The notes beneath the pieces were generated by a model that saw only the letters and a list, made by a program, of their open reading frames with translations, did not search any database and had not been told where the DNA came from. A stretch of 55,182 nt of DNA from Brevinematales bacterium. Its GTDB lineage: Bacteria > Spirochaetota > Brevinematia > Brevinematales > GWF1-51-8. The stretch's first letter is position 1. Every line of letters starts with the position of its first letter. Positions 35,059-48,530 of this stretch are shown here, in pieces. Made by a program: the position numbers and the translations under genes. The stretch covers positions 1-55,182 of the forward strand of contig JABLXV010000014.1 in assembly GCA_013177895.1 (NCBI GenBank). The letters are read 5' to 3'.

Positions 35059-37920
35059 TCAAGGAGCTGCGGCGGAATAACCGGAATTATACGGAATAGT
35101 CACAAATTTACTGTTCCCATAGGCAATTGAAGTCCACATAGCTGAAATAGGTAGGGTTCGCGCGGTCCATGTAATTCCGTCGGGCGATGTGGCCGCCTTG
35201 GTTGAACCGCTTCCGCCAGCCACCAAGGTAAAGATCCCGTACCCATAAGTAACCGAACTCCAGGGTTCAGTGCTTGGCAGCCCCCGTATCGTCCATGTGA
35301 TCCCGTTGGTTGAAGTATACACGTAGTTCAGACCCGGTCCTACCGCAACAAATAACCCGTTGCCGTATGTTACCGATGTCCCATATACGGATGCACCTGG
35401 AGTCCAGTTATACCCGTCGGAGGAAATTGCTGCATTACCCCCGGAAGGCACCGCGACAAACAATCCGTTTCCATAGGTAACCGATTGCCAGTCGGCATCG
35501 CTGTTTATTGAAGCGACTGACCAGTTTATCCCGTCGGGCGATACCACGATATTTGACGAGCGAAATCCAACCGCGACGAAGACGCCGTTCCCATAAGTGA
35601 CCGAATTCCAACTATTTTCTATTGGAAGGAAACGTTTTGTCCAAGTGATCCCATCGGGCGAGGTTACAATATTTGACTCGCTGTAATCAAGCGAGACAAA
35701 TAAGTTATTTCCATATGCTGTGCAGTTCCATTCACCACTCATGGGAAGATTCTGCGATGTCCAATTTATCCCATCGACCGAAATTGCTGCCTTAGAGGAA
35801 TACTGTGCCATCGCCACGAAAATTCCGTTTCCATAGACCACATTTCGCCAATTTGCCGTAAACGGGAGAGAACCCAGTGCCCATGTGGCTCCATTAGGCT
35901 GTTTAATAATTTTCCATGCCGTGCTGATGTTTGTTTTCCCATTGTCGGTAATGGCTCTCGCATAGATGGTATTCGTCCCTGCGGCGAATATCAGGTCTTT
36001 TACCCAAGATGTCGTTCCGGTTGCGTTGCTCCATGCACCGCCGTTCACTTGCACCTGTATCTTCGCGACACTGTAGGGAGCGCTGACGCTTGAGGTGCCT
36101 AATAATGTGTTAGTAAAATAGTATATATAACTTCCATTTGTAGGTGAAGAAATCGTGATAGCGGGTAATGAGTATTTCATTATTTTCCATGCGGATGATG
36201 TATAGGACGCTCCGCTGTTCGCGGTCGCGCGGGCATAAATAGTATTCGTGCCTTCAGTCAGCGTGATATTGCTCGACCATGACGTCGTTCCGTTGACAGT
36301 CTTCCATCCTCCGCCGTTCAACTGCACCTGTACATTTGAAATACTGAATGGAGGCATAACACTGGCCAATCCGGATAACGTTATCGCGGCATTAGCTGTC
36401 GAACTCCCATTAGCCGGCGAAGAAACAGCTATGACAGGGAGGGAATACTTGATTATTTTATAGATTGACGACTGATTGGTCGCTCCACTGTCGGCGATAG
36501 CGCGGGCGTAGACGGTATTGGTTCCTTCCACTAGCATGATATTGCTCGACCATGACACCGTTCCGGGAACCGTTTTCCATGCCCCGCCGTTCAGCTGCAC
36601 CTGTATCTTCGTGATACTGTAAGGGGCGCCAACACTCGACGACCCGGAAAGGGATACGGATGCGGATTCGGATGCGCTTCCGTTTGCCGGTGAAGTGATT
36701 GTTATGGCCGGAAGAGAGTATTTTATAATTTTATACACTGCTGAGGTGTTCGTCTGGTTGTCAACGGAGATGGCTCGGGCATAAATATTATTCGTTCCAT
36801 CGACAAGCGATATTCCAATAGACCAAGAATTAGTTCCGGCCGCGTCATTCCACCCTGCGCCGTTCACCTGCACCTGTACCTTAGCGATAAAACCAGGTGA
36901 ATCCACCGATGCCGATCCGTTTATGGTTATACTTGCGTTATTGGTTTTACTCCCGTTAGCAGGAGAGACAATCACCGCGGATGGGATAGGGGAGCGGAAA
37001 ACTGTAACCTGCTGGGTGATGCTGGAATTCCCGAACATATCTAATCCATATACATAGAATATTTTGTTACCGGAACCCCCGATCGAAAGATTGGTGTTCC
37101 ATGATAATCCTAAAATCGTCGCGGGTTTGAATACCCCGCCGTTCGTTCTGATCATAACCGATTGAACCCCGGAGTACAAGTCACTGACCATACCGTTGAC
37201 GGCAAAGATCGATCCTACTTTCTGGTTATTTGTCGGGGTAACTGTATTAACCACGGGGCCTGTCATATCGCGGACTATTTTCCATTCGGCGGATACGTTA
37301 GTCTTACCGTTATTCGCGAACGCGCACGCGAAGATACGGTTTGTACCCTCGGAAAGCGCGATTTGGTTCGACCATGAACTTAACCCGCCGGCGATTGTCC
37401 AGTTGCCGTTATTGACCTTTACCTCGACCTTGGCGAGTAAATACGGCCACGGTACGCTTGCAGACCCGCCGGTTAAAATATTCGGGACGTTGGTAAGAAG
37501 ATTAAATGCCGGATAGGTAATCATCGCGGTAGGTATACTTTTTTTCTCTACAATAATAATCTTTGTTTCACTAACATTCCCTTTATCGTCCTCGGCGTAA
37601 ATAAAATTGGTATGCTTCCCCAATGTAGAAACAGGAAGGTTTGTGCTCCATGACCCGTTGATAACCGGAACATGTACCGGAATTTGATTATCCAGCTGAA
37701 TCAGTACCGTCATAACCGTACTTCCAGCACCCGACACGCTTCCGACATATTGGATACTTGTACCAACATCCTGATTATTGGTGGGGGAAAAAACGGATAA
37801 TTCGAGCTGAGTTTTTAGCAGATTACTGATATCACTCGGTTCCAATAGTTCGTTGAATAAGCCGCACGCGGTAGTAGTGTAGATTAAAAAGCCGAAGATT
37901 AGCCCAAATGATTTTTTCAA
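35059..37920 (-). CDS. Large lipoprotein: seven Ig-like repeats plus seven-blade propeller
   Basis: A 953-residue predicted surface lipoprotein. The signal peptide ends in lipobox TTAC-G. Then come seven Ig-like units of ~90 residues; the last four are near-identical in plan ([TS]SPANGS..., VQVQLNGGAWK, SWSSNI, EGTNTIYARA). The C-terminal ~290 residues hold seven repeats of the W.SVTYGNG.FVAV...SPDGI.W type, which predicts a seven-bladed propeller. I chose TTG 37920: GGAGGAAAAC lies just before it, and the in-frame ATG at 37932 is itself part of that ribosome site. Likely adhesion or binding; ligand unknown. Confidence 0.82.
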   Translation of the reverse strand: MKKSFGLIFGFLIYTTTACGLFNELLEPSDISNLLKTQLELSVFSPTNNQDVGTSIQYVGSVSGAGSTVMTVLIQLDNQIPVHVPVINGSWSTNLPVSTLGKHTNFIYAEDDKGNVSETKIIIVEKKSIPTAMITYPAFNLLTNVPNILTGGSASVPWPYLLAKVEVKVNNGNWTIAGGLSSWSNQIALSEGTNRIFACAFANNGKTNVSAEWKIVRDMTGPVVNTVTPTNNQKVGSIFAVNGMVSDLYSGVQSVMIRTNGGVFKPATILGLSWNTNLSIGGSGNKIFYVYGLDMFGNSSITQQVTVFRSPIPSAVIVSPANGSKTNNASITINGSASVDSPGFIAKVQVQVNGAGWNDAAGTNSWSIGISLVDGTNNIYARAISVDNQTNTSAVYKIIKYSLPAITITSPANGSASESASVSLSGSSSVGAPYSITKIQVQLNGGAWKTVPGTVSWSSNIMLVEGTNTVYARAIADSGATNQSSIYKIIKYSLPVIAVSSPANGSSTANAAITLSGLASVMPPFSISNVQVQLNGGGWKTVNGTTSWSSNITLTEGTNTIYARATANSGASYTSSAWKIMKYSLPAITISSPTNGSYIYYFTNTLLGTSSVSAPYSVAKIQVQVNGGAWSNATGTTSWVKDLIFAAGTNTIYARAITDNGKTNISTAWKIIKQPNGATWALGSLPFTANWRNVVYGNGIFVAMAQYSSKAAISVDGINWTSQNLPMSGEWNCTAYGNNLFVSLDYSESNIVTSPDGITWTKRFLPIENSWNSVTYGNGVFVAVGFRSSNIVVSPDGINWSVASINSDADWQSVTYGNGLFVAVPSGGNAAISSDGYNWTPGASVYGTSVTYGNGLFVAVGPGLNYVYTSTNGITWTIRGLPSTEPWSSVTYGYGIFTLVAGGSGSTKAATSPDGITWTARTLPISAMWTSIAYGNSKFVTIPYNSGYSAAAP

Positions 37921-37950
37921 GTTTTCCTCCATACAATGAATAACATATGT

Positions 37951-38172: not shown

Positions 38173-39060
38173 CTAACCAAGGAGCCTCAGCACCAGCTGA
38201 GGCTTTAAATTTGCCTGTGCCAGCATGGATACATTGGCCTGCGCCAGAATCTGGTTTTTCACAAATTCACTCATCTGCTCCGCCATATTGGTATCTCTGA
38301 TGCGGGATTCCGCCGCCTGAGTATTCTCAAAAGCGATATAAAGGCCTTTGAAAAGTTTCTCGAAACGGTTCTGATAGGAACCCAGGTCAGTTCTCTGTTT
38401 GGCCACTTTTGAAAGCGCCTGGTCGATGATACCGATGGAACGGTTCGCAGTTTCAGGTAATTCCGCGGAAACCTGCAGAGTCTTATCCTGCTGGAGTCCC
38501 AAGGCGGCCGCGTTCATAGTACCGATAAATACCTGAACTTTTTGATTCATATTCGGTCCGATATGGAACCACAGACCCGCTTCCTCTTCCTTAATGGGAG
38601 CCGATCCTGCCGAAGCGGGAGCGTTCACGTTAGGCTGGGAGAAGCGGCCGAGGAAAATATCCATACCGTTAAACTGAGCCTGCGAAGCGATACGGTTGAC
38701 TTCGTCTACCAGTTGGTTGATTTCGACGTTGATAAGCGATCGATCCTCCGTACTGTAGACACCGTTTCCCGCCTGCACGGAAAGTTCGCGGATCCTCTGG
38801 AGTACTTGCGTAGTTTCTTCCAGGTATCCTTCAGCAGTCTGAAGGAAGGAGACCGCGTCTTCGGTGTTTCGCATGGCCTGATAAAGCCCTTTGATTTGAG
38901 TCCGCATTTTTTCCGATACCGCTAAACCCGAAGCGTCGTCGCCGGCTTTGTTGATTCTCAAGCCGGAAGACAGCTTCTCGATGTCGGAGTTCAGGTTCAT
39001 TTCGGTAATCTTGAATTGTCTGTTCGCGAAAACAGAACTGATATTGTGATTGATGATCAT
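38173..39060 (-). CDS. flaB: Flagellin FlaB-like, copy 2
   Basis: A 295-residue core flagellin of spirochaete FlaB type. N-terminal D0/D1: [39 protein letters not shown]-terminal D1/D0: [21 protein letters not shown] and [16 protein letters not shown] short extra segment ([17 protein letters not shown], about 150-167) sits in the variable middle compared with its neighbour. It lacks a signal peptide, as expected for a flagellar type III export substrate forming periplasmic filaments. AAGGAGGG precedes the ATG. An inverted repeat brackets the gene. Confidence 0.95.
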
Positions 39061-39095
39061 TTCTACCCTCCTTGAAAAAAGTTATCCATCCCTGT

Positions 39096-39113
39096 GATTG
39101 TTGGGGTCCCTAG
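39096..39113. repeat. Inverted repeat flanking a flagellin gene, proximal arm
   Basis: GATTGTTGGGGTCCCTAG, matching the reverse complement of 38106-38124 at 18 of 19 positions (one A missing). It lies 36 bases upstream of the flagellin ATG, in the 5' leader. Confidence 0.85.
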
Positions 39114-39115
39114 GT

Positions 39116-39135
39116 ACCGTACTCGCGGGTACGGT
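39116..39135 (-). promoter_or_regulatory. Leader hairpin upstream of flagellin copy 2
   Basis: ACCGTAC (39116-39122) pairs with GTACGGT (39129-39135) around a 6-nt loop, directly beside the inverted-repeat arm. Confidence 0.5.
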
Positions 39136-39189
39136 TGATGGAGTTAAGGTAGAAGATCACGAGCCTATTACCGTTAAAAACAGATATAT

Positions 39190-39250
39190 CCCGATCAAAG
39201 ATCGGGAGTTTTATAAACAGTAGTTACCCCGATGGCGGCGGGGTAACTAC
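39190..39250 (-). terminator. Two hairpins after flagellin copy 1
   Basis: GTAGTTACCCCG (39220-39231) pairs with CGGGGTAACTAC (39239-39250), 42 bp after the flagellin stop; next CCCGATC (39190-39196) pairs with GATCGGG (39200-39206). On the minus strand T-rich bases follow each. Probably a terminator or processing site giving separate transcripts for the two flagellins. No clear sigma-28 site was found in the 232-bp gap. Confidence 0.6.
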
Positions 39251-39292
39251 TTATATTCGATGTATCGTTAATACCTATCCCTGAGGAACCCC

Positions 39293-40153
39293 CTACCGCA
39301 GAAGAGCCAGAACAAGCTGAGGCTTCTGATTAGCCTGAGCAAGCATAGCAGTCGCGGCCTGAGTGAGTATCTGATTCTTTACGAAATCACTCATCTCAGT
39401 AGCCATATTGGTGTCGCGAATGCGGGATTCGGCAGCCTGCAGGTTTTCAGCACCGATCATCAAAGCTTTACCGGTATATTCGAGACGGTTCTGGTATGCA
39501 CCGAGATCCGCTCTCTGCTTATTCACTTTGGTCAACGCAACGTCAATCAAACCGATAGACATATTCGCGTTTTCAGGAGTGCTGAGGCTTACGATGGTAT
39601 TGTTAACCGGGTTTTTCATACCGAGAGCGGCGGCGGTCATCGTACCGACGAAGGCCTGTTCTCTCTGGTCCATATTCGCACCGAGGTGGAACCACATACT
39701 CGCAGTAGGAGTGTTTCCGATACTCGGCTGAGCGAAACGGCCGGTCAGCATGTTCAAACCGTTAAACTGGGCATGGGAAGCGATACGATCCAATTCGTCC
39801 ACCATCTGGGAAACTTCCACTTGAATCATCATACGATCGGTAGTGTCGTAGATACCGTTCGCAGCCTGAACGGAAAGTTCACGAAGACGCTGTAAAATAT
39901 CGGTGGATTCCTGGAGATAACCTTCGGTAGTCTGGATGAAGGAAACGGCATCCTCAGTGTTTTTCACAGCTCGCCATAAGCCGCGAACCTGAGCACGCAT
40001 TTTCTCAGAGACAGCCAACCCTGAAGCATCGTCGCCGGCTTTGTTGATACGCATTCCGGAAGACAGCTTCTCGATGTTCTTGTCCATTTCGAGCCCATCA
40101 TTTTTCAACGCACGATTGGCAAAGATTGCGCTGAGGTTGTGATTGATGATCAT
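39293..40153 (-). CDS. flaB: Flagellin FlaB-like, copy 1
   Basis: A 286-residue core flagellin, very close to canonical spirochaete FlaB. It has [63 protein letters not shown], a [11 protein letters not shown] segment, and the C-terminal [21 protein letters not shown]...[10 protein letters not shown]. No signal peptide. GGAGGATTTT precedes the ATG. A hairpin lies 25-50 bases upstream in the leader. It lies upstream of, and in the same orientation as, the second flagellin. Confidence 0.96.
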
Positions 40154-40393: not shown

Positions 40394-40419
40394 AAATCCT
40401 TAAAATATTTTAAGGATTT
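40394..40419. promoter_or_regulatory. Perfect 26-bp palindrome, candidate operator
   Basis: Half-site AAATCCTTAAAAT is followed immediately by its exact reverse complement, with no spacer. It ends 14 bp before the -35 box of the glucan-cluster promoter and no T-run follows, which favours a dimer-binding site over a terminator. Apart from this, the promoter and the flagellin-leader hairpin, the 343-bp gap 40154-40496 shows nothing I can name. Confidence 0.65.
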
Positions 40420-40433
40420 GAAGGAAAAAAGTA

Positions 40434-40461
40434 TTGACAAAACGTAAAACTACTTTAAACT
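40434..40461 (+). promoter_or_regulatory. Promoter of the glucan-uptake cluster
   Basis: TTGACA (40434-40439) and TAAACT (40456-40461) with 16 bp between; the first ATG of the cluster is at 40497. No other good promoter is seen up to the terminator at 48.5 kb. Confidence 0.6.
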
Positions 40462-40496
40462 TAAAAAAATGTAAAAAATCGATGGAGGTTACTAAT

Positions 40497-41888
40497 ATGA
40501 AGTTATTGAGAATACTTTTCTTATTTGCGATAGTATTGACTGTATCGTCGCAGGGGTATTCGAAAGCTGCATTGGATAAAAGTCAATTATTGGTGTATAT
40601 TACCAATTCTGCAATAGCATTGACAAACTGGGCAGGATTAAATTATGGATGGGATGCAGATGATAATCTTATAGGCGCGTCTATGGTGTTAACCTATCCG
40701 AAATTTTCAACAAATTCAATATCAAATATTACCCAGTATCTCTATCCGCCTAAGACAACAGAAAACAGATGTGAATTATCCGATGACTCTAAAATGTCCA
40801 GTGCGAATTCTCAAACTTCTGGAGAAATATTCGGGTTATGGTTCACTTGGGATACAAACGGTTTTTATTATGCGATACAAGGGCAATCGGTAGGGAGATG
40901 GAATAATATTTTATTCCTTATTGACCGGGTAACCAATGTCGGCACGCGTTCGATGCAGGATATGAATACTGGATGGAAACGTAATATCAACCTATACCAG
41001 TGGGATACCGATTTTTATTTGGGATTTTGGTGCGCAAATGACCAACCCTATTTAACTGGCGGTGGCGGGTATCAGGCTTGGCGAACCGTAAGTATCGATC
41101 CTTCGGGTGGGTTATATGTTGGATGGGAGCAATTATGTAGTGTCGCGGTAGGTGGGGCGGCTACTTGGAATATTGCAGGATTAAGCAATACATTTTTTAT
41201 GAATTTTAATGGAAATGATGAATCTGATTCAACTGAAAGAGTGGTATTAGGCTTTGTAAAATGGAGCCTATTTACGAATGGTATGTCTCCGACATATATA
41301 TCAAATATGACAATTAAAATTGCGGCCGTTAGTACTGGACCAGATGATGGAAGTCCTGTATATGATTTTTGCCCCGATAATTTAGGGGGTATAAATCCTC
41401 TCAACCCACGGGTTGCTCTAGAGAATTACTTTTTATTAAATGTTTTTACCAATGGGCATGTAAATACTAATTATTCGCCTCAAATAAATGGAAAAATGTA
41501 TGCTATTCCTGGGGCGAGCGATTACTTAAGTATTATTGTTCCCGAGTTTAGTTCCGCCAAGGATAATTTTAGTAATAACACCTCTTACTTAGTACCGGAT
41601 CAAGGTGGAGAAATTACTTTTACTATTGACGCAGCTAAAATGGATAGTATTGGGTATCTATATTCAGTGAAAGTTTATGTTTTTGATTTAGCTGGGAATA
41701 AAGTAGCGACAATCTATGACGGAGTCGATACTCTTGATAATAGTAACATCGGACAATATTTAAAGTGGGATGGGAAAGATGATAAAGGTAGTATAGTCGG
41801 TATGGGCACATACATAGTAGTGTTAAGTGGGTTTAATCCCTCCAGCGATGCCATCAAGCTGAAGGGAATTGTAAACGTAATCCGTTAG
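40497..41888 (+). CDS. Secreted protein with FlgD-Ig-like C-terminal domain
   Basis: A 463-residue exported protein. The signal peptide is MKLLRILFLFAIVLTVSSQG with cleavage near YSKA. The central region (about 40-340) is Trp/Asn/Tyr-rich and beta-rich, with an acidic DGSPVYDFCPDN segment, like sugar-binding or dehydrogenase-associated surface domains; I do not recognise the family. The last ~85 residues (YSVKVYVFDLAGNKVATIYDG...LKWDGKDDKGSIVGMGTYIVVL) are a FlgD-Ig/type-A-CTD-like fold. ATG 40497 follows GGAGG; an upstream TTG in frame is part of the -35 box. First gene of the cluster. Confidence 0.8.
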   Translation: MKLLRILFLFAIVLTVSSQGYSKAALDKSQLLVYITNSAIALTNWAGLNYGWDADDNLIGASMVLTYPKFSTNSISNITQYLYPPKTTENRCELSDDSKMSSANSQTSGEIFGLWFTWDTNGFYYAIQGQSVGRWNNILFLIDRVTNVGTRSMQDMNTGWKRNINLYQWDTDFYLGFWCANDQPYLTGGGGYQAWRTVSIDPSGGLYVGWEQLCSVAVGGAATWNIAGLSNTFFMNFNGNDESDSTERVVLGFVKWSLFTNGMSPTYISNMTIKIAAVSTGPDDGSPVYDFCPDNLGGINPLNPRVALENYFLLNVFTNGHVNTNYSPQINGKMYAIPGASDYLSIIVPEFSSAKDNFSNNTSYLVPDQGGEITFTIDAAKMDSIGYLYSVKVYVFDLAGNKVATIYDGVDTLDNSNIGQYLKWDGKDDKGSIVGMGTYIVVLSGFNPSSDAIKLKGIVNVIR

Positions 41889-41901
41889 AAAGGAGGATAG
41901 A

Positions 41902-42846
41902 ATGAGAAAAATAAAGCTTATTTCAGTATGTTTTATCATAGCATTTATTTCATCTGTAAACGGATTATTTGGAGAGATAGTAGAAAGCCGATATATTGGT
42001 GGAAAAGTAGTGGGTAAGGGTGGCGCTATTTCGGCCGATTCAATGGGAGTTTCCTCAATCTTCTTTAACCCCGCTGCATTATCGGATATAAAGAAGAGTT
42101 TGGAAGTGTGGGTTGCCTATGGAATGCCATATGAATCTGTTGGAACGCTAGCTCTACATGAATTTGCATTTGCGGCTGGATATAATCTGGGAGCCGTTAA
42201 AGTTGCAGTGGGTTTTAAATCCACGGGCGATTTTAATACCTTATCTTATAATTATATCTATTGTGGAGGAGGCACATCGTTTGACCTTGGAAGTTCTGTT
42301 TTCAAATCGCTTGCCGTGGGTTTGAATATTAAACTAGTTGATTTACATGCTGGAAATGTTCCTACCTATTCCCTCTTTACCATGAATAGTGATGCTCTCG
42401 GATTTTCGTTGGATGTTGGAGTTCAACTCGCAATGTTTAACAAGGATCTTGTTTTTGCAATAAATGGGAAAAATCTATACTCCTCGACCTTATCTTTAAT
42501 TGCAGGAGGAGTAGGCGACACCCTAAAGAGAGATTTGTTTTTAGGTCTTAAATATAATGTAACAAAATTCCTCAATCTCACACTTGATTATAACGTTCTG
42601 GGCTCTGATCATTCGGTCGCATATTTAAATCTTTTTGGGGATAGTTTTTCATTCGCGAATCTCTATTTCGGGATAGAATTCGATTACTTGGAAAACCTTG
42701 AAATCTATACCGGATTTAATGAAGGCTCTCTCACTTTAGGTGTAGGATTAACAGATTCAGACTATTTTAAAATAGACCTTGGGTTGTGGGTCGTACCGGG
42801 ATTGAAGATGTATAGTCATATCGGTTTGTCCATCAGACCCTTCTAA
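41902..42846 (+). CDS. PorV/UPF0164-like outer-membrane protein
   Basis: A 314-residue exported protein with signal peptide (ISVCFIIAFISSVNGLFGE). The start of the mature chain, GKVVGKGGAISADSMGVSSIFFNPAALSD, is the N-terminal pattern of PorV/PorQ and spirochaete UPF0164 proteins, a FadL-related beta-barrel group. The rest alternates in amphipathic strands and ends with a C-terminal aromatic (IRPF), as outer-membrane barrels do. AAGGAGG precedes the ATG; 13 bp after the previous stop. Likely outer-membrane channel or secretion shuttle. Confidence 0.78.
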   Translation: MRKIKLISVCFIIAFISSVNGLFGEIVESRYIGGKVVGKGGAISADSMGVSSIFFNPAALSDIKKSLEVWVAYGMPYESVGTLALHEFAFAAGYNLGAVKVAVGFKSTGDFNTLSYNYIYCGGGTSFDLGSSVFKSLAVGLNIKLVDLHAGNVPTYSLFTMNSDALGFSLDVGVQLAMFNKDLVFAINGKNLYSSTLSLIAGGVGDTLKRDLFLGLKYNVTKFLNLTLDYNVLGSDHSVAYLNLFGDSFSFANLYFGIEFDYLENLEIYTGFNEGSLTLGVGLTDSDYFKIDLGLWVVPGLKMYSHIGLSIRPF

Positions 42847-42866
42847 TGAACTAAGAGGAGGAGATA

Positions 42867-44477
42867 ATGAAAACGAAGATATTAGGTGCATTGCTTTTGT
42901 TATTCATATTTTCACAAGCAATGTTCGCGGGAATCACATGGAATGCTTTTATGGAAGGGGGCATCCAGTGGTATAACGATGCTGCTGGAACGGTTGTTTC
43001 CAATGGAACATGGAAAATTTATCCGTATAGTGATACTCACTATGGTTATTATGAGTTGAGGATGAATCTGCTTAGTGATAATGGTTGGACTGGTTGGGGA
43101 AATTTGCAGATGTATATGTTGGATTCCTCTGCAGCCAATATGCAGATAAAAAATCCGCAAATTCATTTTTCTTATCGTCCAAATAAATTGAATTTCTCAT
43201 TAATTCGAAACGAGAACTGGACATGGTTGGGACAGCCATACTTGAGTATTTTTGGTCAGAAGAACGTGGATCAAAAAACAGTAACTTTTTACTTTGAGCA
43301 AAGTGACCAGATATTGAAAGGATTACATACAAAAACAGTAATCTATGGAAAAGATATTAATGATAACTATCTGGGAAATCGAATCGATGGCGGGTATAAG
43401 CTTGGTAAATTTTTCTCGGGATCGTTGGGTTTTACGTTTTCTATGAAGCGTTGGGCGGCTGTTAGCAATAATTCGGTATTAGGGTTTGGTTATGATGCTA
43501 ACGCAAATATCATTCTTCCCGCAGGCATCAACGTGTTTGTGGGATTGGAATTTAACCATATCGATGAACCATGGAGAGGTCCATTAACAAACACTCCTTT
43601 TTTAGGCTCTATAGATGCTCTTGCTTATCGTTTTGAGTTAAAGTCGTCATTCCCTACAATGGCAGGAAACTTTAATCTCAATGGAAGCATAATGTATAAA
43701 GGAAAGAACTATGATGCCGATGCGCAGTTTGGTGGAACCGGTGGAAACTGGTTTGAGGAATTTTTCCAATTCCTTTACTCGTTCCCTCTAAAAATGATCG
43801 ATTTTGAGTTTAATATGAAATATGCGCACCCTGTCTATGCTTCTATAGCAAAATTTGGTAGTCCTGTGCTACCCACAAAAACAATTGTCAATACCAACTG
43901 GATTTGGGGATATCATATTTGGGATTATACTGAAGGAGTTTATGGAACTGGGCAGGTTTTAAATTATTATGCAAAGCTCAGTGTTCAGTTTAAGAAGGGC
44001 ATCAAATTTTTTGCGAGTTATATTGTTTATAAACCGGGAAGTATTGAACTTTGGGGTGGAAATAATAAATATGATGATAATAAAGATAATGATGCATTGT
44101 TCTTCGAGTTAAAGTTTGAGAATGAGACCGGAAAGATCAATTTGCAGTATAAAATCTACCGTGCTTTTTATGATGATCCTGCTTATCGGATTGAAGCGGG
44201 TGGTCTTGAATTGGTTGCAAATATTACATCGCAGTTGAAACTATACTCACGTGTATTACTGATGAACAGTGGCGGCGCTATTCTGACCTCCAGCGGTTCC
44301 TCCACATGGTGGAACTATTTCGGTCAAATTCAGTATTATCCGGTTAATAATATGGGAATCTTCCTTGAGTTTGGTAACGGCGGCGACTCAGATCGTTTAA
44401 CGAGTACGGTTGGAGCAACTTATTCCGCTAAGCAGTTTGAAAGGAAGATAGTTTTAAAGTTTAACTATAATATATAA
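42867..44477 (+). CDS. Predicted outer-membrane beta-barrel protein A
   Basis: A 536-residue exported protein with a clean signal peptide (LGALLLLFIFSQAMFA-G). The mature chain is rich in alternating aromatic/polar strands (for example IKFFASYIVYKPGSIELWGG, KINLQYKIYRAFYDD) and closes with VLKFNYNI, a barrel-like end. No Cys lipobox. No family recognised; the pattern suits a large monomeric barrel of porin type. Strong ribosome site GAGGAGG. In an operon between the PorV-like gene and a second barrel, hence a candidate oligosaccharide pore. Confidence 0.7.
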   Translation: MKTKILGALLLLFIFSQAMFAGITWNAFMEGGIQWYNDAAGTVVSNGTWKIYPYSDTHYGYYELRMNLLSDNGWTGWGNLQMYMLDSSAANMQIKNPQIHFSYRPNKLNFSLIRNENWTWLGQPYLSIFGQKNVDQKTVTFYFEQSDQILKGLHTKTVIYGKDINDNYLGNRIDGGYKLGKFFSGSLGFTFSMKRWAAVSNNSVLGFGYDANANIILPAGINVFVGLEFNHIDEPWRGPLTNTPFLGSIDALAYRFELKSSFPTMAGNFNLNGSIMYKGKNYDADAQFGGTGGNWFEEFFQFLYSFPLKMIDFEFNMKYAHPVYASIAKFGSPVLPTKTIVNTNWIWGYHIWDYTEGVYGTGQVLNYYAKLSVQFKKGIKFFASYIVYKPGSIELWGGNNKYDDNKDNDALFFELKFENETGKINLQYKIYRAFYDDPAYRIEAGGLELVANITSQLKLYSRVLLMNSGGAILTSSGSSTWWNYFGQIQYYPVNNMGIFLEFGNGGDSDRLTSTVGATYSAKQFERKIVLKFNYNI

Positions 44478-44503
44478 TTATTCAGGAAAATAGGAGGAAT
44501 AAT

Positions 44504-46072
44504 ATGAATGCTGTTAAGAAAATAATGACGGTGGTCTTATTTACGGTGTTTTATATGATTGGGTTTTCAAATACTTCCCATAGTGCTATGCTTCTTTTTA
44601 AAGGGAAAGGGTTCTTTTTAATGAATATGAAGATGGATATGTCAAATATTCTTGTAAATCCTTTCGGAACCGGACAACCTTTACTAACAAGTTCTTCATT
44701 CTTAAAAATTGATCTTTATCCAACATATGAAGATAAAAATTTTAAATCGGAATTGAAAATAAAAATAAATCCTTATGCTACGGGAACAGATTATTTACTC
44801 GCTGACGGATTTAATTTTATTTATGATACGGATTCCGCGAATATTGCGATCTTTGTTAATAGATATGGCTTTAGATTTCATGATCCCATGTTTACTGGTA
44901 TAGAACAGTATAATTGGGAAAATTCGAAATACAGTTATGACAGGCCTGTCTATTTTTCCTATAATAATTCTGTACAGACACCAGCGTTTTATGAAGGCGA
45001 AAAGGTAGATGATCGTTTCCTCAAACTTGGTTATGGTTTAACCGGTATTTATTTAGGAAGTAAAGGTGATTTAAGCTATGAAATAGCTGCGTATTTGAAT
45101 AAATGGCAAACAAGTTCGCATATTCAGGCCGATGTTGCATACGATATGGGGCTTTTAAAAGCGGGTGTCATTTTTAAGCTTGACAATCATCCAAATAGTG
45201 ATGTAGCAAAGGGCGCTGCCTATAATCTGACCAATGTTTTCGATGGATTGGTACAGCGCTATAATAATGCGTTTGTCACCTATTCAGCAGGATTATTTGG
45301 TAATGTTAACCTTGAGGTACTCAATATCTTTTTTGAGGGTGTATACCGAACCGGAACTGGTATGCCGGGTGTTGCGACAAATACAAGTAAGAATGGGTTA
45401 ATTGATATCTATGCCGGGGTTGGATCCGATATTATTCCCGGATCTTCTATAGAGGTAGCCACACTTTATAGAATGTATACTCCTGGAACTGACTATAGAA
45501 TGGACATCATGGTAAAAGATTATAATGCACTTGACTTCGGCGACGTCCAACTATTCTTGTTAGCAAATGTAGTCATCTTTTCAGGCAAGTTCTCTTCTAC
45601 TGATTTAAGCGGTATGGGGGCTTCGTTAAGCGCACGAATACCTATGTTTGATTTAATTACACTGAGAGTTGCGGCAACATATGAATCTTATACAATTTCA
45701 ACAAATAATACCGCGGATTTAGTTCTTAAGGCTACTGTTGATTATTACTTTGATGAGACCTCATGGGTATATGCTGGTATTGTGATGTATAATCTTATGA
45801 AGTTCAACGGATTAACAGCGTATGAACCTTCATATTTCTTACCCGTGGTAGGTTTTGTCTCGTCACCATTTGAATCTTTACGTCTATCATTGACATTTGG
45901 ATATAATGTCGAAGTATTTGAATATGATAATAGTGGTGCTAACATGGAAAATATTGTGTCCAAGAGTATTGCCACTGTTCCTGTTGGAGCAGAAACTCAG
46001 GTATATTCCACAGATTGGCTTAAAATGGTTGCCAATCCATCGGTAAACTTTACTGCTAATATTATATTTTAA
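44504..46072 (+). CDS. Predicted outer-membrane beta-barrel protein B
   Basis: A 522-residue exported protein; the signal peptide is in VVLFTVFYMIGFSNTSHSA. The mature part consists of alternating amphipathic strands (DLSYEIAAYLNKWQTSSH, LFGNVNLEVLNIFFEGVYRTG, SLRLSLTFGYNVEVFEYD) and ends in VNFTANIIF with a terminal Phe, the classical outer-membrane sorting end. Similar in length and style to the preceding barrel, though direct homology is not obvious by eye. TAGGAGGA precedes the ATG. Codon usage is strongly AT-rich. Confidence 0.7.
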   Translation: MNAVKKIMTVVLFTVFYMIGFSNTSHSAMLLFKGKGFFLMNMKMDMSNILVNPFGTGQPLLTSSSFLKIDLYPTYEDKNFKSELKIKINPYATGTDYLLADGFNFIYDTDSANIAIFVNRYGFRFHDPMFTGIEQYNWENSKYSYDRPVYFSYNNSVQTPAFYEGEKVDDRFLKLGYGLTGIYLGSKGDLSYEIAAYLNKWQTSSHIQADVAYDMGLLKAGVIFKLDNHPNSDVAKGAAYNLTNVFDGLVQRYNNAFVTYSAGLFGNVNLEVLNIFFEGVYRTGTGMPGVATNTSKNGLIDIYAGVGSDIIPGSSIEVATLYRMYTPGTDYRMDIMVKDYNALDFGDVQLFLLANVVIFSGKFSSTDLSGMGASLSARIPMFDLITLRVAATYESYTISTNNTADLVLKATVDYYFDETSWVYAGIVMYNLMKFNGLTAYEPSYFLPVVGFVSSPFESLRLSLTFGYNVEVFEYDNSGANMENIVSKSIATVPVGAETQVYSTDWLKMVANPSVNFTANIIF

Positions 46073-46100
46073 TTGATATTATATTATTAAGGAGGTAAAA

Positions 46101-46601
46101 ATGAAATCTATAAAGAAGTTCCTCCTATCTATTTTAGGAATATTCATGATAAGTACCGTGTTTTCTTCATGCGGAGTGCTCGATGCGGTTAAGGATCGTT
46201 ATATCCCTTATGAATTGGTAGGTGTTCAGGAAAGCGAAGTATTGGTAAAGTTTGTTTTCGATGCGCCGTCTGCTACAGAAGTATGGCTGGCCGGCTCGTT
46301 TAATAACTGGTCGCAGAGTAAGAGTAATCCCGCGTATCCCGCGGTGCCGCTTGCGCAAAACGCCCGTGTTGTTATGTCGCTCGATCCGAAGACGGGCTAT
46401 TGGGTAGCAACTATTCCATTGGCGCCCGGCAGATATCAGTATAAGTATATAGTCGATACTTCCAACTGGCAGGAAGACCCGAACACTCCCGAGCACGTGG
46501 ATGACGGCTTTGGCGGAAACAACTCCATTGTAATGGTAACTATGCCAAGCGGTGAAACGGAAGCGCCTAAAGAAGAAAAGGCTCCTGAGCCGGTGCAATA
46601 G
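46101..46601 (+). CDS. Lipoprotein with CBM48/AMPK-type glycogen-binding domain, copy A
   Basis: A 166-residue lipoprotein: signal peptide with lipobox FSSC, Cys24 lipidated. Residues ~45-145 form an early-set CBM48/AMPK-beta-like glycogen-binding domain: VWLAGSFNNWSQ, then GYWVATIPLAPGRYQYKYIVD and NWQEDPNTP. The Trp of FNNW and of GYW match the alpha-glucan-stacking positions of that family. The C-terminal tail is Glu/Pro/Lys-rich. AAGGAGGT precedes the ATG. Its sister gene starts 19 bp downstream. Predicted to bind alpha-1,4-glucan on the envelope. Confidence 0.85.
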   Translation: MKSIKKFLLSILGIFMISTVFSSCGVLDAVKDRYIPYELVGVQESEVLVKFVFDAPSATEVWLAGSFNNWSQSKSNPAYPAVPLAQNARVVMSLDPKTGYWVATIPLAPGRYQYKYIVDTSNWQEDPNTPEHVDDGFGGNNSIVMVTMPSGETEAPKEEKAPEPVQ

Positions 46602-46620
46602 TTCGAGATAAGGGGAATAA

Positions 46621-47079
46621 ATGAATCGTAGGTTATATAGTTTGAAGCATTTATGGATGGCATTACTACTAGGGTTAGTTTTTTGCCTGACGGGTTGTGA
46701 TGATTCGGAAGTGATGGATAGGGTGTTACCCTATAAAGTCCTGGGTTCTCTTGGCGGCAGTGAAATTTTAGTAAAATTTAATTTCGACGAGCCGACAGCC
46801 CGGGAGGTATGGCTTATCGGGGATTTTAACAATTGGGCGGTTGGTTTATCTAACCCTTTCTATCCCGATGCTCCTTTATCGCAGGGTGCCAAGGTTGCCA
46901 TGCGAATGGATCCCACAACTGGATTTTGGACGGTAACTATCCCTTTGGTCGCGGGTCGTTATATGTATCAGTACGCGATTGATCAGGGAATCATTGTTCA
47001 AGGCGATCCGAATAACTCTGATAAGCATGAATTGGCAGATGGGACATTTAAATCAGTGGTTTATGTTATAGACAAATAA
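46621..47079 (+). CDS. Lipoprotein with CBM48/AMPK-type glycogen-binding domain, copy B
   Basis: A 152-residue lipoprotein with lipobox LTGC. Tandem paralogue of the previous gene: a shared mature start (MDRVLPYKVLG against KDRYIPYELVG), then SEILVKFNFDEPTAREVWLIGDFNNWA and GFWTVTIPLVAGRYMYQYAID. The ligand-site tryptophans are kept; the acidic C-terminal tail of copy A is absent. Its third-position GC is higher than that of the barrel genes. The sugar-binding protein gene follows 17 bp downstream. Confidence 0.85.
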   Translation: MNRRLYSLKHLWMALLLGLVFCLTGCDDSEVMDRVLPYKVLGSLGGSEILVKFNFDEPTAREVWLIGDFNNWAVGLSNPFYPDAPLSQGAKVAMRMDPTTGFWTVTIPLVAGRYMYQYAIDQGIIVQGDPNNSDKHELADGTFKSVVYVIDK

Positions 47080-47096
47080 AGTTTTTGGAGGCATAC

Positions 47097-48482
47097 ATGA
47101 CCAAGTATTTATGGATAATCGCTTGTATAGCTATGCTATCTTTTACCGCATGCGACGGAAAGGGTGGCGGCGGAACAAACGATACGATTTCCGACGAGTA
47201 TAAGCTGGACGAAACAGGGGATGTTGTCTTAACCTTCTTAATGTGGGGTACGCCGGAGGAGAAAACTGCGGTTTACGCTGTGTTAAAGCGTTTCCAGACT
47301 ATTCAAAAAGAAAAGGGCGAACCCATAGGTTTGAAAGTGATAGCAGTTGATTCACTTTCCTACTCAGATAAATTACAGACGATGTTCGCGGGCGGTACTT
47401 ATCCCGATGTGTTCTATTTGCATATTCAGGACTTCTTTAAATATGCGAGTAAGGGTAATCTGGCTCCGTTGGACGACTATACGAAAGAAGAAGATTTTAA
47501 TATAAACGACTTCTATCCCCAATTGATAGACGCGTTCACGTTTGAAGGAACAATCTACGGCGTACCTAAGGACTGGACATCGTTCGTACTTTACTATAAT
47601 ATGGACATGTTTGATAAAGAGGGATTAGCCTATCCGAACAGTACTTGGACATGGGATGATTTCCTCAATGCGGCGAAAATCCTGACCAAAGATCTCAACG
47701 GTGATAAGAAAATTGACCAGTACGGGTTTATCATCGAAACTTGGGCCGACTGGTATCAGTCATGGATTATGCAGAATGACGGCCAGATATTCGACGCAAA
47801 AGGCAACTGGGTATTCTCACGCGGCGCTAACGTTGATAAAAACGCTCAGGCTATTCAGTTTGTCGCGGACCTTATCAATGTAGTCGGTGTAGCTCCCAGT
47901 ATAGACCAGTCGAGACAGCTCGGCGGCGGTGAAGCCTTTATGTCGGGTCGCGTCGCTATGTGTATGTACGGCCGCTGGCAGATGCAGAAATTCAAAAAAG
48001 TTAAAGACTTTAAGTGGAATTATGCGGTACTGCCTCAAAAGGCGAAAAAAGCCTCGACTGTTGTGACAGTAGCGCTTTCTATCGCCGCGCAGTCTCCTAA
48101 CAAAGAAGCGGCATGGAAACTTTTAAAGTTTGTCACCAGTTTTGAGGGGCAGATATTTAATGCGGAAGCCGGTACGGGTGTGCCGTCGAGAATATCCTTA
48201 GTAGAATCCGATCATTACCTGAAGGCGCCGGAAGTCATCAAGTTCCAGCCCCAGTTAGCGATGAAGAGTTCAAAGGATGACCCGTTTATCATCCAGTTGG
48301 CTTATGGAACATTTGCGCCTGCCAATCCCTATTGGCTTGAAGTACGCCAGAAAATGGATGAACAGTTTGACGAGGTATTCCTCGGCAAGCAGCAGGCAAA
48401 GGATGTTATCCTGCGACTTGATAAAATTATCAACGACATCATTGAGCCTCAGGCAATCGAGAATGTAGAAGTATCTGAATAG
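47097..48482 (+). CDS. ABC-type sugar-binding lipoprotein (family 1 solute-binding protein)
   Basis: A 461-residue periplasmic solute-binding lipoprotein with lipobox SFTAC (Cys19). The family 1 (MalE/UgpB-like) core is clear: VLTFLMWGTPEEKTAVYAVLKRF, MFAGGTYPDVFYLH, GTIYGVPKDWTSFVLYYNMDMFDKEGL, TWTWDDFLNAAKILT, and GGGEAFMSGRVAMCMYGRW. Such proteins deliver oligosaccharides to an ABC permease. ATG 47097 follows TTGGAGG; a GTG-type longer start would overlap that site. No permease or ATPase gene follows: a strong terminator ends the operon. Confidence 0.92.
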   Translation: MTKYLWIIACIAMLSFTACDGKGGGGTNDTISDEYKLDETGDVVLTFLMWGTPEEKTAVYAVLKRFQTIQKEKGEPIGLKVIAVDSLSYSDKLQTMFAGGTYPDVFYLHIQDFFKYASKGNLAPLDDYTKEEDFNINDFYPQLIDAFTFEGTIYGVPKDWTSFVLYYNMDMFDKEGLAYPNSTWTWDDFLNAAKILTKDLNGDKKIDQYGFIIETWADWYQSWIMQNDGQIFDAKGNWVFSRGANVDKNAQAIQFVADLINVVGVAPSIDQSRQLGGGEAFMSGRVAMCMYGRWQMQKFKKVKDFKWNYAVLPQKAKKASTVVTVALSIAAQSPNKEAAWKLLKFVTSFEGQIFNAEAGTGVPSRISLVESDHYLKAPEVIKFQPQLAMKSSKDDPFIIQLAYGTFAPANPYWLEVRQKMDEQFDEVFLGKQQAKDVILRLDKIINDIIEPQAIENVEVSE

Positions 48483-48498
48483 TTTTCGGATAGAATTC

Positions 48499-48530
48499 AG
48501 GGGCTGTCTCAAAAGGCAGCCCCTTTTTTT
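48499..48530 (+). terminator. Strong terminator of the glucan cluster
   Basis: GGGGCTG (48500-48506) with CAGCCCC (48517-48523), extended by two further pairs, then a run of seven T. It lies 18 bp after the sugar-binding protein stop. Confidence 0.92.

What the first reader, a model, noticed from the sequence alone, without database searches (positions are those of the whole stretch)
40394..48530. Spirochaetal outer-membrane glucan-capture cluster, distinct from Sus
Seven genes in one apparent transcription unit combine a secreted FlgD-Ig-ended protein, a PorV/UPF0164-like barrel, two further predicted barrels, two CBM48-like lipoproteins and a family 1 sugar-binding lipoprotein. Seen: gene order, short gaps (13-31 bp), strong ribosome sites, promoter and terminator. 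Known: CBM48 domains bind alpha-glucans and family 1 binding proteins serve ABC sugar importers. Inferred: surface lipoproteins hold glycogen or starch fragments, barrels admit them and the binding protein hands them to a permease encoded elsewhere. I know no described system with this set.
Basis: partly seen in the sequence, partly recalled or inferred. Interest (0 to 1): 0.75.

Follow-up and report, generated by a model that had tools for sequence, protein, structure and literature searches.

The report
Spirochaete alpha-glucan capture gene cluster
A seven-gene operon in an uncultured groundwater spirochaete, whose core recurs in distant spirochaetes beside starch-binding and glycogen-degrading genes, probably builds an outer-membrane device for catching starch- or glycogen-like sugars, with parts that resemble a protein-secretion system so far credited only to the Bacteroidetes group.

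Summary
The operon is real. All seven genes stand in the same order, with short gaps, a conserved promoter and differently spelled terminators, in congeneric Brevinematales genomes. A core (secreted FlgD_ig-ended protein, PorV-like barrel, g3 barrel, CBM48 lipoprotein g5) recurs in other orders and classes of Spirochaetota, but g3 in only 12 of 393 genomes.

The alpha-glucan reading is well supported. g5 keeps all four AMPK-beta glycogen-contact positions in the nine genomes examined. In other classes CBM48 is fused to a barrel, and the locus extends to CBM20 and triple-CBM48 proteins; in one genome to an alpha-glucan phosphorylase and a GH13 enzyme. Genomes with the cluster carry more CBM48 domains.

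Corrections: g6 has lost three of four contacts; g4, g6 and the binding protein are lineage-specific; "surface" location is unproven; the barrels rest on sequence statistics only, because both structure models failed.

Verdict: a new variant of a polysaccharide-utilisation-type system, without SusC/SusD.

The parts
40434..40461 (+). Promoter TTGACA-16-TAAACT
   Evidence: both hexamers invariant in the window, G001 and G003
40497..41888 (+). g1: secreted protein, beta-rich (probably DOMON/CBM9-like) middle and C-terminal FlgD_ig/CHU_C-type domain
   Evidence: orthologues 20-85% identical in other genomes
41902..42846 (+). g2: PorV/PorQ/SprF-family-like outer-membrane barrel
   Evidence: strand alternation z 4.2
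42867..44477 (+). g3: core predicted barrel, no described family; orthologues in 12 of 393 phylum genomes
44504..46072 (+). g4: genus-specific predicted barrel; other, not detectably homologous barrels fill this position in relatives
46101..46601 (+). g5: CBM48/AMPK1_CBM lipoprotein with Trp/Lys/Trp/Asn glycogen-contact positions intact; core gene
46621..47079 (+). g6: CBM48-like lipoprotein, genus-specific, three of four contact positions replaced
47097..48482 (+). g7: family 1 sugar-binding lipoprotein (SBP_bac_1), distant MalE/GanS likeness; genus-specific in this cluster
48499..48524 (+). Intrinsic terminator (11-pair stem, T tail)
   Evidence: stems of different sequence at the same place in G001, G002, G003

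Best explanation
The operon encodes an outer-membrane alpha-glucan (starch/glycogen/maltodextrin) capture and uptake apparatus that does not use SusC/SusD. Proposed course: g1 is exported and held at the surface with the help of its PorV-family partner g2, possibly through the SprA/Sov-like protein encoded elsewhere in the genome, and touches the polymer. The g3 and g4 barrels let glucan chains into the periplasm. The CBM48 lipoprotein g5, tethered at the outer membrane, binds the chain and keeps it at the channel. The lipoprotein g7, perhaps with g6, hands oligosaccharides to a MalF/MalG-type ABC permease encoded elsewhere. Shown: gene order, conservation, domain content, intact binding positions in g5, link to glucan genes, permease candidates. 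Inferred: every location and transport step, and the direction of flow.
For: Conserved order in the genus and a conserved core in other orders and classes. g5 binding positions W/K/W/N in all nine cluster genomes examined. The CBM profile hits pullulanase and AMPK-beta structures. In G019, G029, G041 and G051 the barrel after g3 carries an N-terminal CBM48 with W, K and W kept. The locus extends in G019 and G029 to a Big_5 + triple-CBM48 lipoprotein, in G019 also to a CBM20 protein, an alpha-glucan phosphorylase (PF00343 + DUF3417) and a GH13 enzyme. CBM48 counts: cluster-positive genomes 3-17 (median 8.5), 48 negative genomes 0-5 (median 2), p 3e-7 per genome and 0.005 per family after removing two copies for the cluster itself. 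The own genome has a CBM48 GH13 enzyme beside a CBM48 lipoprotein, a second GH13 enzyme with a signal-like N-terminus, and a MalK/MalG-type importer operon containing a g5 paralogue 40-42% identical.
Against: Barrels not modelled: g3 pLDDT 31, g1 pLDDT 49. No binding or expression data. In the window itself there is no hydrolase or permease next to the cluster. g6 lacks the contact positions. The count association is not corrected for phylogeny beyond family averages, and family f5 genomes carry the core with only 3-4 CBM48 domains. A CBM48 fold can serve non-sugar roles.
Confidence: 0.6

Rival explanations
1. The cluster is mainly a T9SS-like secretion and anchoring unit: g1 is the cargo, g2 its PorV/SprF-type shuttle, and the barrels and CBM48-fold lipoproteins are assembly or plug-like partners; glucan binding is secondary or vestigial.
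For: FlgD_ig/CHU_C/Por_Secre_tail-like C-termini near PorV-like barrels recur in the extended loci of G019 and G029. A SprA/Sov-like match occurs in 11 of 12 cluster genomes. g5 has a weak hit to the T9SS plug protein.
Against: g5 keeps sugar-contact residues rather than only the fold. Phosphorylase and GH13 genes adjoin the cluster in G019. No GldM motor was detected, though that search had no positive control.
Confidence: 0.2
2. A structural or adhesive outer-sheath complex whose CBM48 domains recognise the cell's own envelope polysaccharide or make protein contacts, with no role in nutrition.
For: No hydrolase adjoins the window cluster; g6 has lost the contact positions; FlgD_ig domains are common in very large proteins also in SprA-negative genomes.
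Against: A sugar-binding protein in the operon, GH13/phosphorylase neighbours in G019, and the link with CBM48-rich genomes.
Confidence: 0.13
3. A chance row of unrelated envelope genes.
For: None beyond the absence of experiments.
Against: Order conserved over genus, class and phylum with short or overlapping gaps.
Confidence: 0.01

Closest known systems
Bacteroidetes starch utilisation system (SusC/D/E/F/G)
   Same: Outer-membrane channel proteins, glucan-binding lipoproteins and alpha-glucan enzymes in one locus; the Big_5 + triple-CBM48 lipoprotein of G019/G029 is laid out like SusE/SusF (likeness from own knowledge).
   Different: No TonB plug, SusC or SusD match among the cluster proteins; no hydrolase in the window operon; CBM48 instead of SusE/F domains; a family 1 ABC binding protein in the operon; PorV-like and FlgD_ig proteins.
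Type IX secretion system (SprA/Sov, PorV, CTD cargo; SprB-SprF pairs)
   Same: PorV-family-like barrel beside a protein with a CHU_C/FlgD_ig-like C-terminal domain; a SprA/Sov-like protein in the genome.
   Different: SprA match below the curated cut-off (64-105 bits against 200); GldM not detected; phylum outside the reported range.
Maltodextrin porin plus ABC uptake (LamB/MalEFGK of proteobacteria)
   Same: Family 1 binding protein, MalF/G/K-type genes in the genome, predicted porins.
   Different: Barrels without any LamB or porin family match; the binding protein is encoded apart from its permease; CBM48 lipoproteins.
AMPK-beta/SEX4-type glycogen-binding module (CBM48)
   Same: g5 fold family and the four contact positions.
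   Different: A free lipoprotein domain, not part of a kinase, phosphatase or hydrolase.

Membership tests
Sus-type polysaccharide utilisation locus | SusC (TonB-dependent) and SusD pair | tested here: not met
   No TonB/SusC/SusD Pfam or NCBIfam hit among the seven proteins or the scanned homologues; the 1-3 Plug-domain matches per genome lie on contigs other than the cluster's
Sus-type polysaccharide utilisation locus | Glycan-binding outer-membrane lipoproteins in the locus | tested here: inconclusive
   g5 has a lipobox and intact glycogen-contact positions; location not tested
Type IX secretion system | SprA/Sov translocon | tested here: inconclusive
   1989-aa protein, TIGR04189 E 5e-18 (own genome) and 1.5e-30 (G029), below the 200-bit cut-off
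Type IX secretion system | GldM/PorM motor | tested here: inconclusive
   No match, but the search rang nowhere, control genomes included
Type IX secretion system | C-terminal sorting domain on cargo | tested here: inconclusive
   g1 orthologue CHU_C E 9e-5; neighbours in G019 CHU_C and Por_Secre_tail, all below cut-off; FlgD_ig also occurs in SprA-negative genomes
PorV/PorQ family | Curated NF033709 score of 90 bits | tested here: not met
   20-48 bits for g2 and its homologues: a relative, not a member by the curated cut-off
CBM48/AMPK1_CBM | Pfam cut-off score | tested here: met
   g5 39.8 bits against 26.8 (AMPK1_CBM); g6 22.7 against 22.4 (CBM_48)
CBM48/AMPK1_CBM | Glycogen-contact residues Trp100/Lys126/Trp133/Asn150 (AMPK-beta numbering, own knowledge) | tested here: met
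   g5 4 of 4 in all nine cluster genomes examined; g6 only 1 of 4
Family 1 extracellular solute-binding protein | SBP_bac_1 cut-off | tested here: met
   125 bits against 26; substrate not resolved

The most novel reading that the evidence does not exclude
Spirochaetota possess a divergent SprA/PorV-based secretion route, a T9SS relative outside the FCB group, and this cluster is one of its outputs: a secreted, surface-anchored alpha-glucan-catching complex coupled to dedicated barrels and an ABC importer.
Probability: 0.3. Interest if true: 0.82.

Novelty: new variant of a known kind. Interest (0 to 1): 0.64.

Why it matters
Glycan capture at the outer membrane is understood almost only through SusC/SusD and a few porins; how environmental spirochaetes take up polymers is largely undescribed (own knowledge). 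This cluster would give a second, independently built solution with testable parts. The attached observation, SprA/Sov-like proteins in about 40% of sampled spirochaete genomes, would extend a secretion system reported as confined to Bacteroidetes (PMC4793230) or the FCB superphylum (PMC11205867) into another phylum.

Tried and rejected
Structure prediction of g1 and g3 from six-sequence alignments failed (mean pLDDT 49 and 31). The Foldseek list for g1 includes the starch-binding Sas6/CBM74, but with TM-scores of at most 0.24, so I draw nothing from it. Sequence searches of PorV-like g2 and barrel g3 against solved structures gave nothing. Pfam SprA_N found nothing in the own genome and rang in no control; the NCBIfam SprA model did match. 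I considered FlgD_ig as proof of T9SS sorting and rejected it, because SprA-negative genomes also carry FlgD_ig (median 1 against 3 in SprA-positive genomes). I considered a homologous relation between g4 and the barrels at the same place in relatives and found none by profile comparison. No Rfam family lies in or near the operon. Literature searches for spirochaetal T9SS or CBM48 outer-membrane systems found no description in the held library.

Full report
WHERE IT IS. The window is contig 14 of a 3.6 Mb, 95% complete genome. Named relatives of the cluster are a Brevinematales bacterium (isolate DeMMO6_14, L050) and Spirochaetes bacterium GWF1_51_8 (L051). The genus has four genomes in the collection.

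THE OBSERVATION. Seven co-directional genes run from 40497 to 48482 with gaps of 13, 20, 26, 28, 19 and 17 bp and a ribosome-binding site before each start. The promoter TTGACA-16-TAAACT at 40434 is no better than chance by consensus scanning (25 sites found, 26 expected), but both hexamers are invariant in three species. The terminator at 48499-48524 has an 11-pair stem; G001, G002 and G003 have stems of quite different sequence in the same place, which speaks for a real terminator. In G001 and G003 all seven genes stand in the same order; the G002 contig starts inside g3 and continues with g4-g7. The flanking genes (two flagellins, a large helicase-like gene) are also shared in the genus, so synteny there is partly general; the stronger evidence is the next point.

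THE CORE IN DISTANT RELATIVES. g1-g2-g3, one or two further predicted barrels, and a g5-type lipoprotein recur in another order of the same class (G014, G015; partly on G016 and G017 contigs that end early) and in other classes (G019, G029, G051; G041 up to a contig end), with short or overlapping gaps. A profile of g3 finds 12 of 393 genomes of the phylum, 8 of 328 good-quality ones. The same-order families f2-f4 lack it. g4, g6 and g7 appear in the cluster only inside the genus. At the g4 position relatives have other barrels with no detectable homology to g4; in G019, G029, G041 and G051 the barrel after g3 carries an N-terminal CBM48 domain, and in G019, G029 and G051 a barrel related to it follows.

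WHY ALPHA-GLUCAN. First, the g5 family hits pullulanase and AMPK-beta structures, and at the positions equivalent to AMPK-beta Trp100, Lys126, Trp133 and Asn150 every g5 orthologue examined (nine genomes) has Trp, Lys, Trp, Asn; the CBM48-barrel fusions keep Trp, Lys, Trp; g6 keeps only the first Trp (the role of these residues in AMPK is from my own knowledge). Second, in G019 the locus continues to a CBM20-bearing protein, a lipoprotein with Big_5 and several AMPK1_CBM domains, an alpha-glucan phosphorylase and a GH13 enzyme; G029 shares the extension up to the triple-CBM48 lipoprotein. Third, cluster genomes are richer in CBM48: 13-17 in the genus, 17, 9, 8 and 8 in the other-class genomes, 3-4 in family f5, against 0-5 in 48 genomes without the cluster (p 3e-7 by genome, 0.005 by family after subtracting two copies). 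This test does not fully remove shared ancestry, and f5 does not follow the trend. Fourth, the own genome has a GH13+CBM48 enzyme next to a CBM48 lipoprotein, conserved in G001, a GH13 enzyme with a signal-like N-terminus, a MalE/F/G-type set on contig 1, and on contig 57 a MalK/MalG-type importer with a family 1 binding protein and a g5 paralogue of 40-42% identity. The g7 substrate is not resolved: it scores with MalE and GanS models far below their cut-offs.

BARRELS. g3 and g4 match no family. Structure models are too poor to use. Alternating hydrophobicity, as in transmembrane strands, exceeds shuffles at z 3.6-4.8 in g2, g3, g4 and the two barrel families of the other classes, and at 1.7-2.1 in the two f5 families; g1 gives 2.0 and the sugar-binding protein -1.1. 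Many members end in an aromatic residue. Barrel nature is thus likely, not shown.

THE SECRETION LINK. g2 and its homologues match PorV, PorQ and PorP/SprF models with E-values to 1e-12, below curated cut-offs. g1 ends in a FlgD_ig domain, and its G029 orthologue also scores with the CHU_C type IX signal domain; neighbours in the extended G019 locus score with CHU_C and Por_Secre_tail, next to another PorV-like gene. All but one of the 12 cluster genomes, the exception being G051 at 78% completeness, hold a match to the SprA/Sov model. The own copy is 1989 aa (E 5e-18) and the G029 copy scores 105 bits; six of them align over 1,700-2,000 residues with shared blocks such as EDLNGNG.LD. In 120 phylum genomes 47 match, none above the cut-off, and none of 14 control genomes does. 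A GldM search found nothing but had no positive control. Published surveys restrict T9SS to Bacteroidetes (PMC4793230) or the FCB superphylum (PMC11205867). I therefore state a divergent SprA-like protein as shown, a working T9SS-like route as possible, and export of g1 by it as a hypothesis.

TOPOLOGY. By the usual rule for outer-membrane barrels, an N-terminal fused CBM48 faces the periplasm, so at least that module may act on the inner side of the channel. g5 orthologues have Gly, Leu, Ser or Ala after the lipobox Cys, g6 has Asp or Glu, and g7 Asp in three of four genomes; under the E. coli rule this would place g5 in the outer and g6/g7 in the inner membrane, but spirochaete sorting rules differ (own knowledge), so this is only a lead.

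VERDICT. Observation confirmed; interpretation partly supported and extended. It works like a polysaccharide-utilisation locus for alpha-glucans, but it is not a Sus locus by the defining pair. Novelty: new variant of a known kind.

Noticed in passing
L081:4508-10477 (own genome, contig 15): 1989-aa SprA/Sov-like protein; similar ones in 47 of 120 sampled Spirochaetota genomes, a phylum not credited with a type IX secretion system.
   Followed up: partly
L059:5031-11441 (own genome, contig 57): MalK/MalG-type sugar ABC importer operon containing a CBM48 lipoprotein 40-42% identical to g5, a further lipoprotein and an ankyrin-repeat protein.
   Followed up: partly
L031:8931-11831 (own genome, contig 13): 966-aa membrane protein with an N-terminal CBM48 domain that keeps all four glycogen-contact positions and a large C-terminal part not identified here: a candidate glucan sensor.
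   Followed up: no
L024:1607-3045 and L025 near 2084-2741: Tandem small CBM48 proteins (three on contig 42, two on contig 47), some with lost contact positions; part of about 20 CBM48 matches in the genome.
   Followed up: partly
L093 and L094: Extended locus in G029 and G019: very large protein with repeated DOMON-like, fn3 and starch-module-like stretches, two 330-370-aa secreted proteins, a third PorV-like barrel, triple-CBM48 lipoprotein, and in G019 alpha-glucan phosphorylase and GH13.
   Followed up: partly
L064:11892-13991 (own genome, contig 8): Subtilase with C-terminal FlgD_ig/CHU_C-like domain, another possible cargo of a SprA-like route.
   Followed up: no
window 35059-37932 (-): 957-aa protein with a lipobox-like N-terminus, repeated Ig-like stretches and a C-terminal series of repeats around 'YGNG.FVA'.
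   Followed up: no
window 38173-40153 (-): Two flagellin genes in tandem directly upstream of the cluster, conserved in G001 and G003.
   Followed up: no
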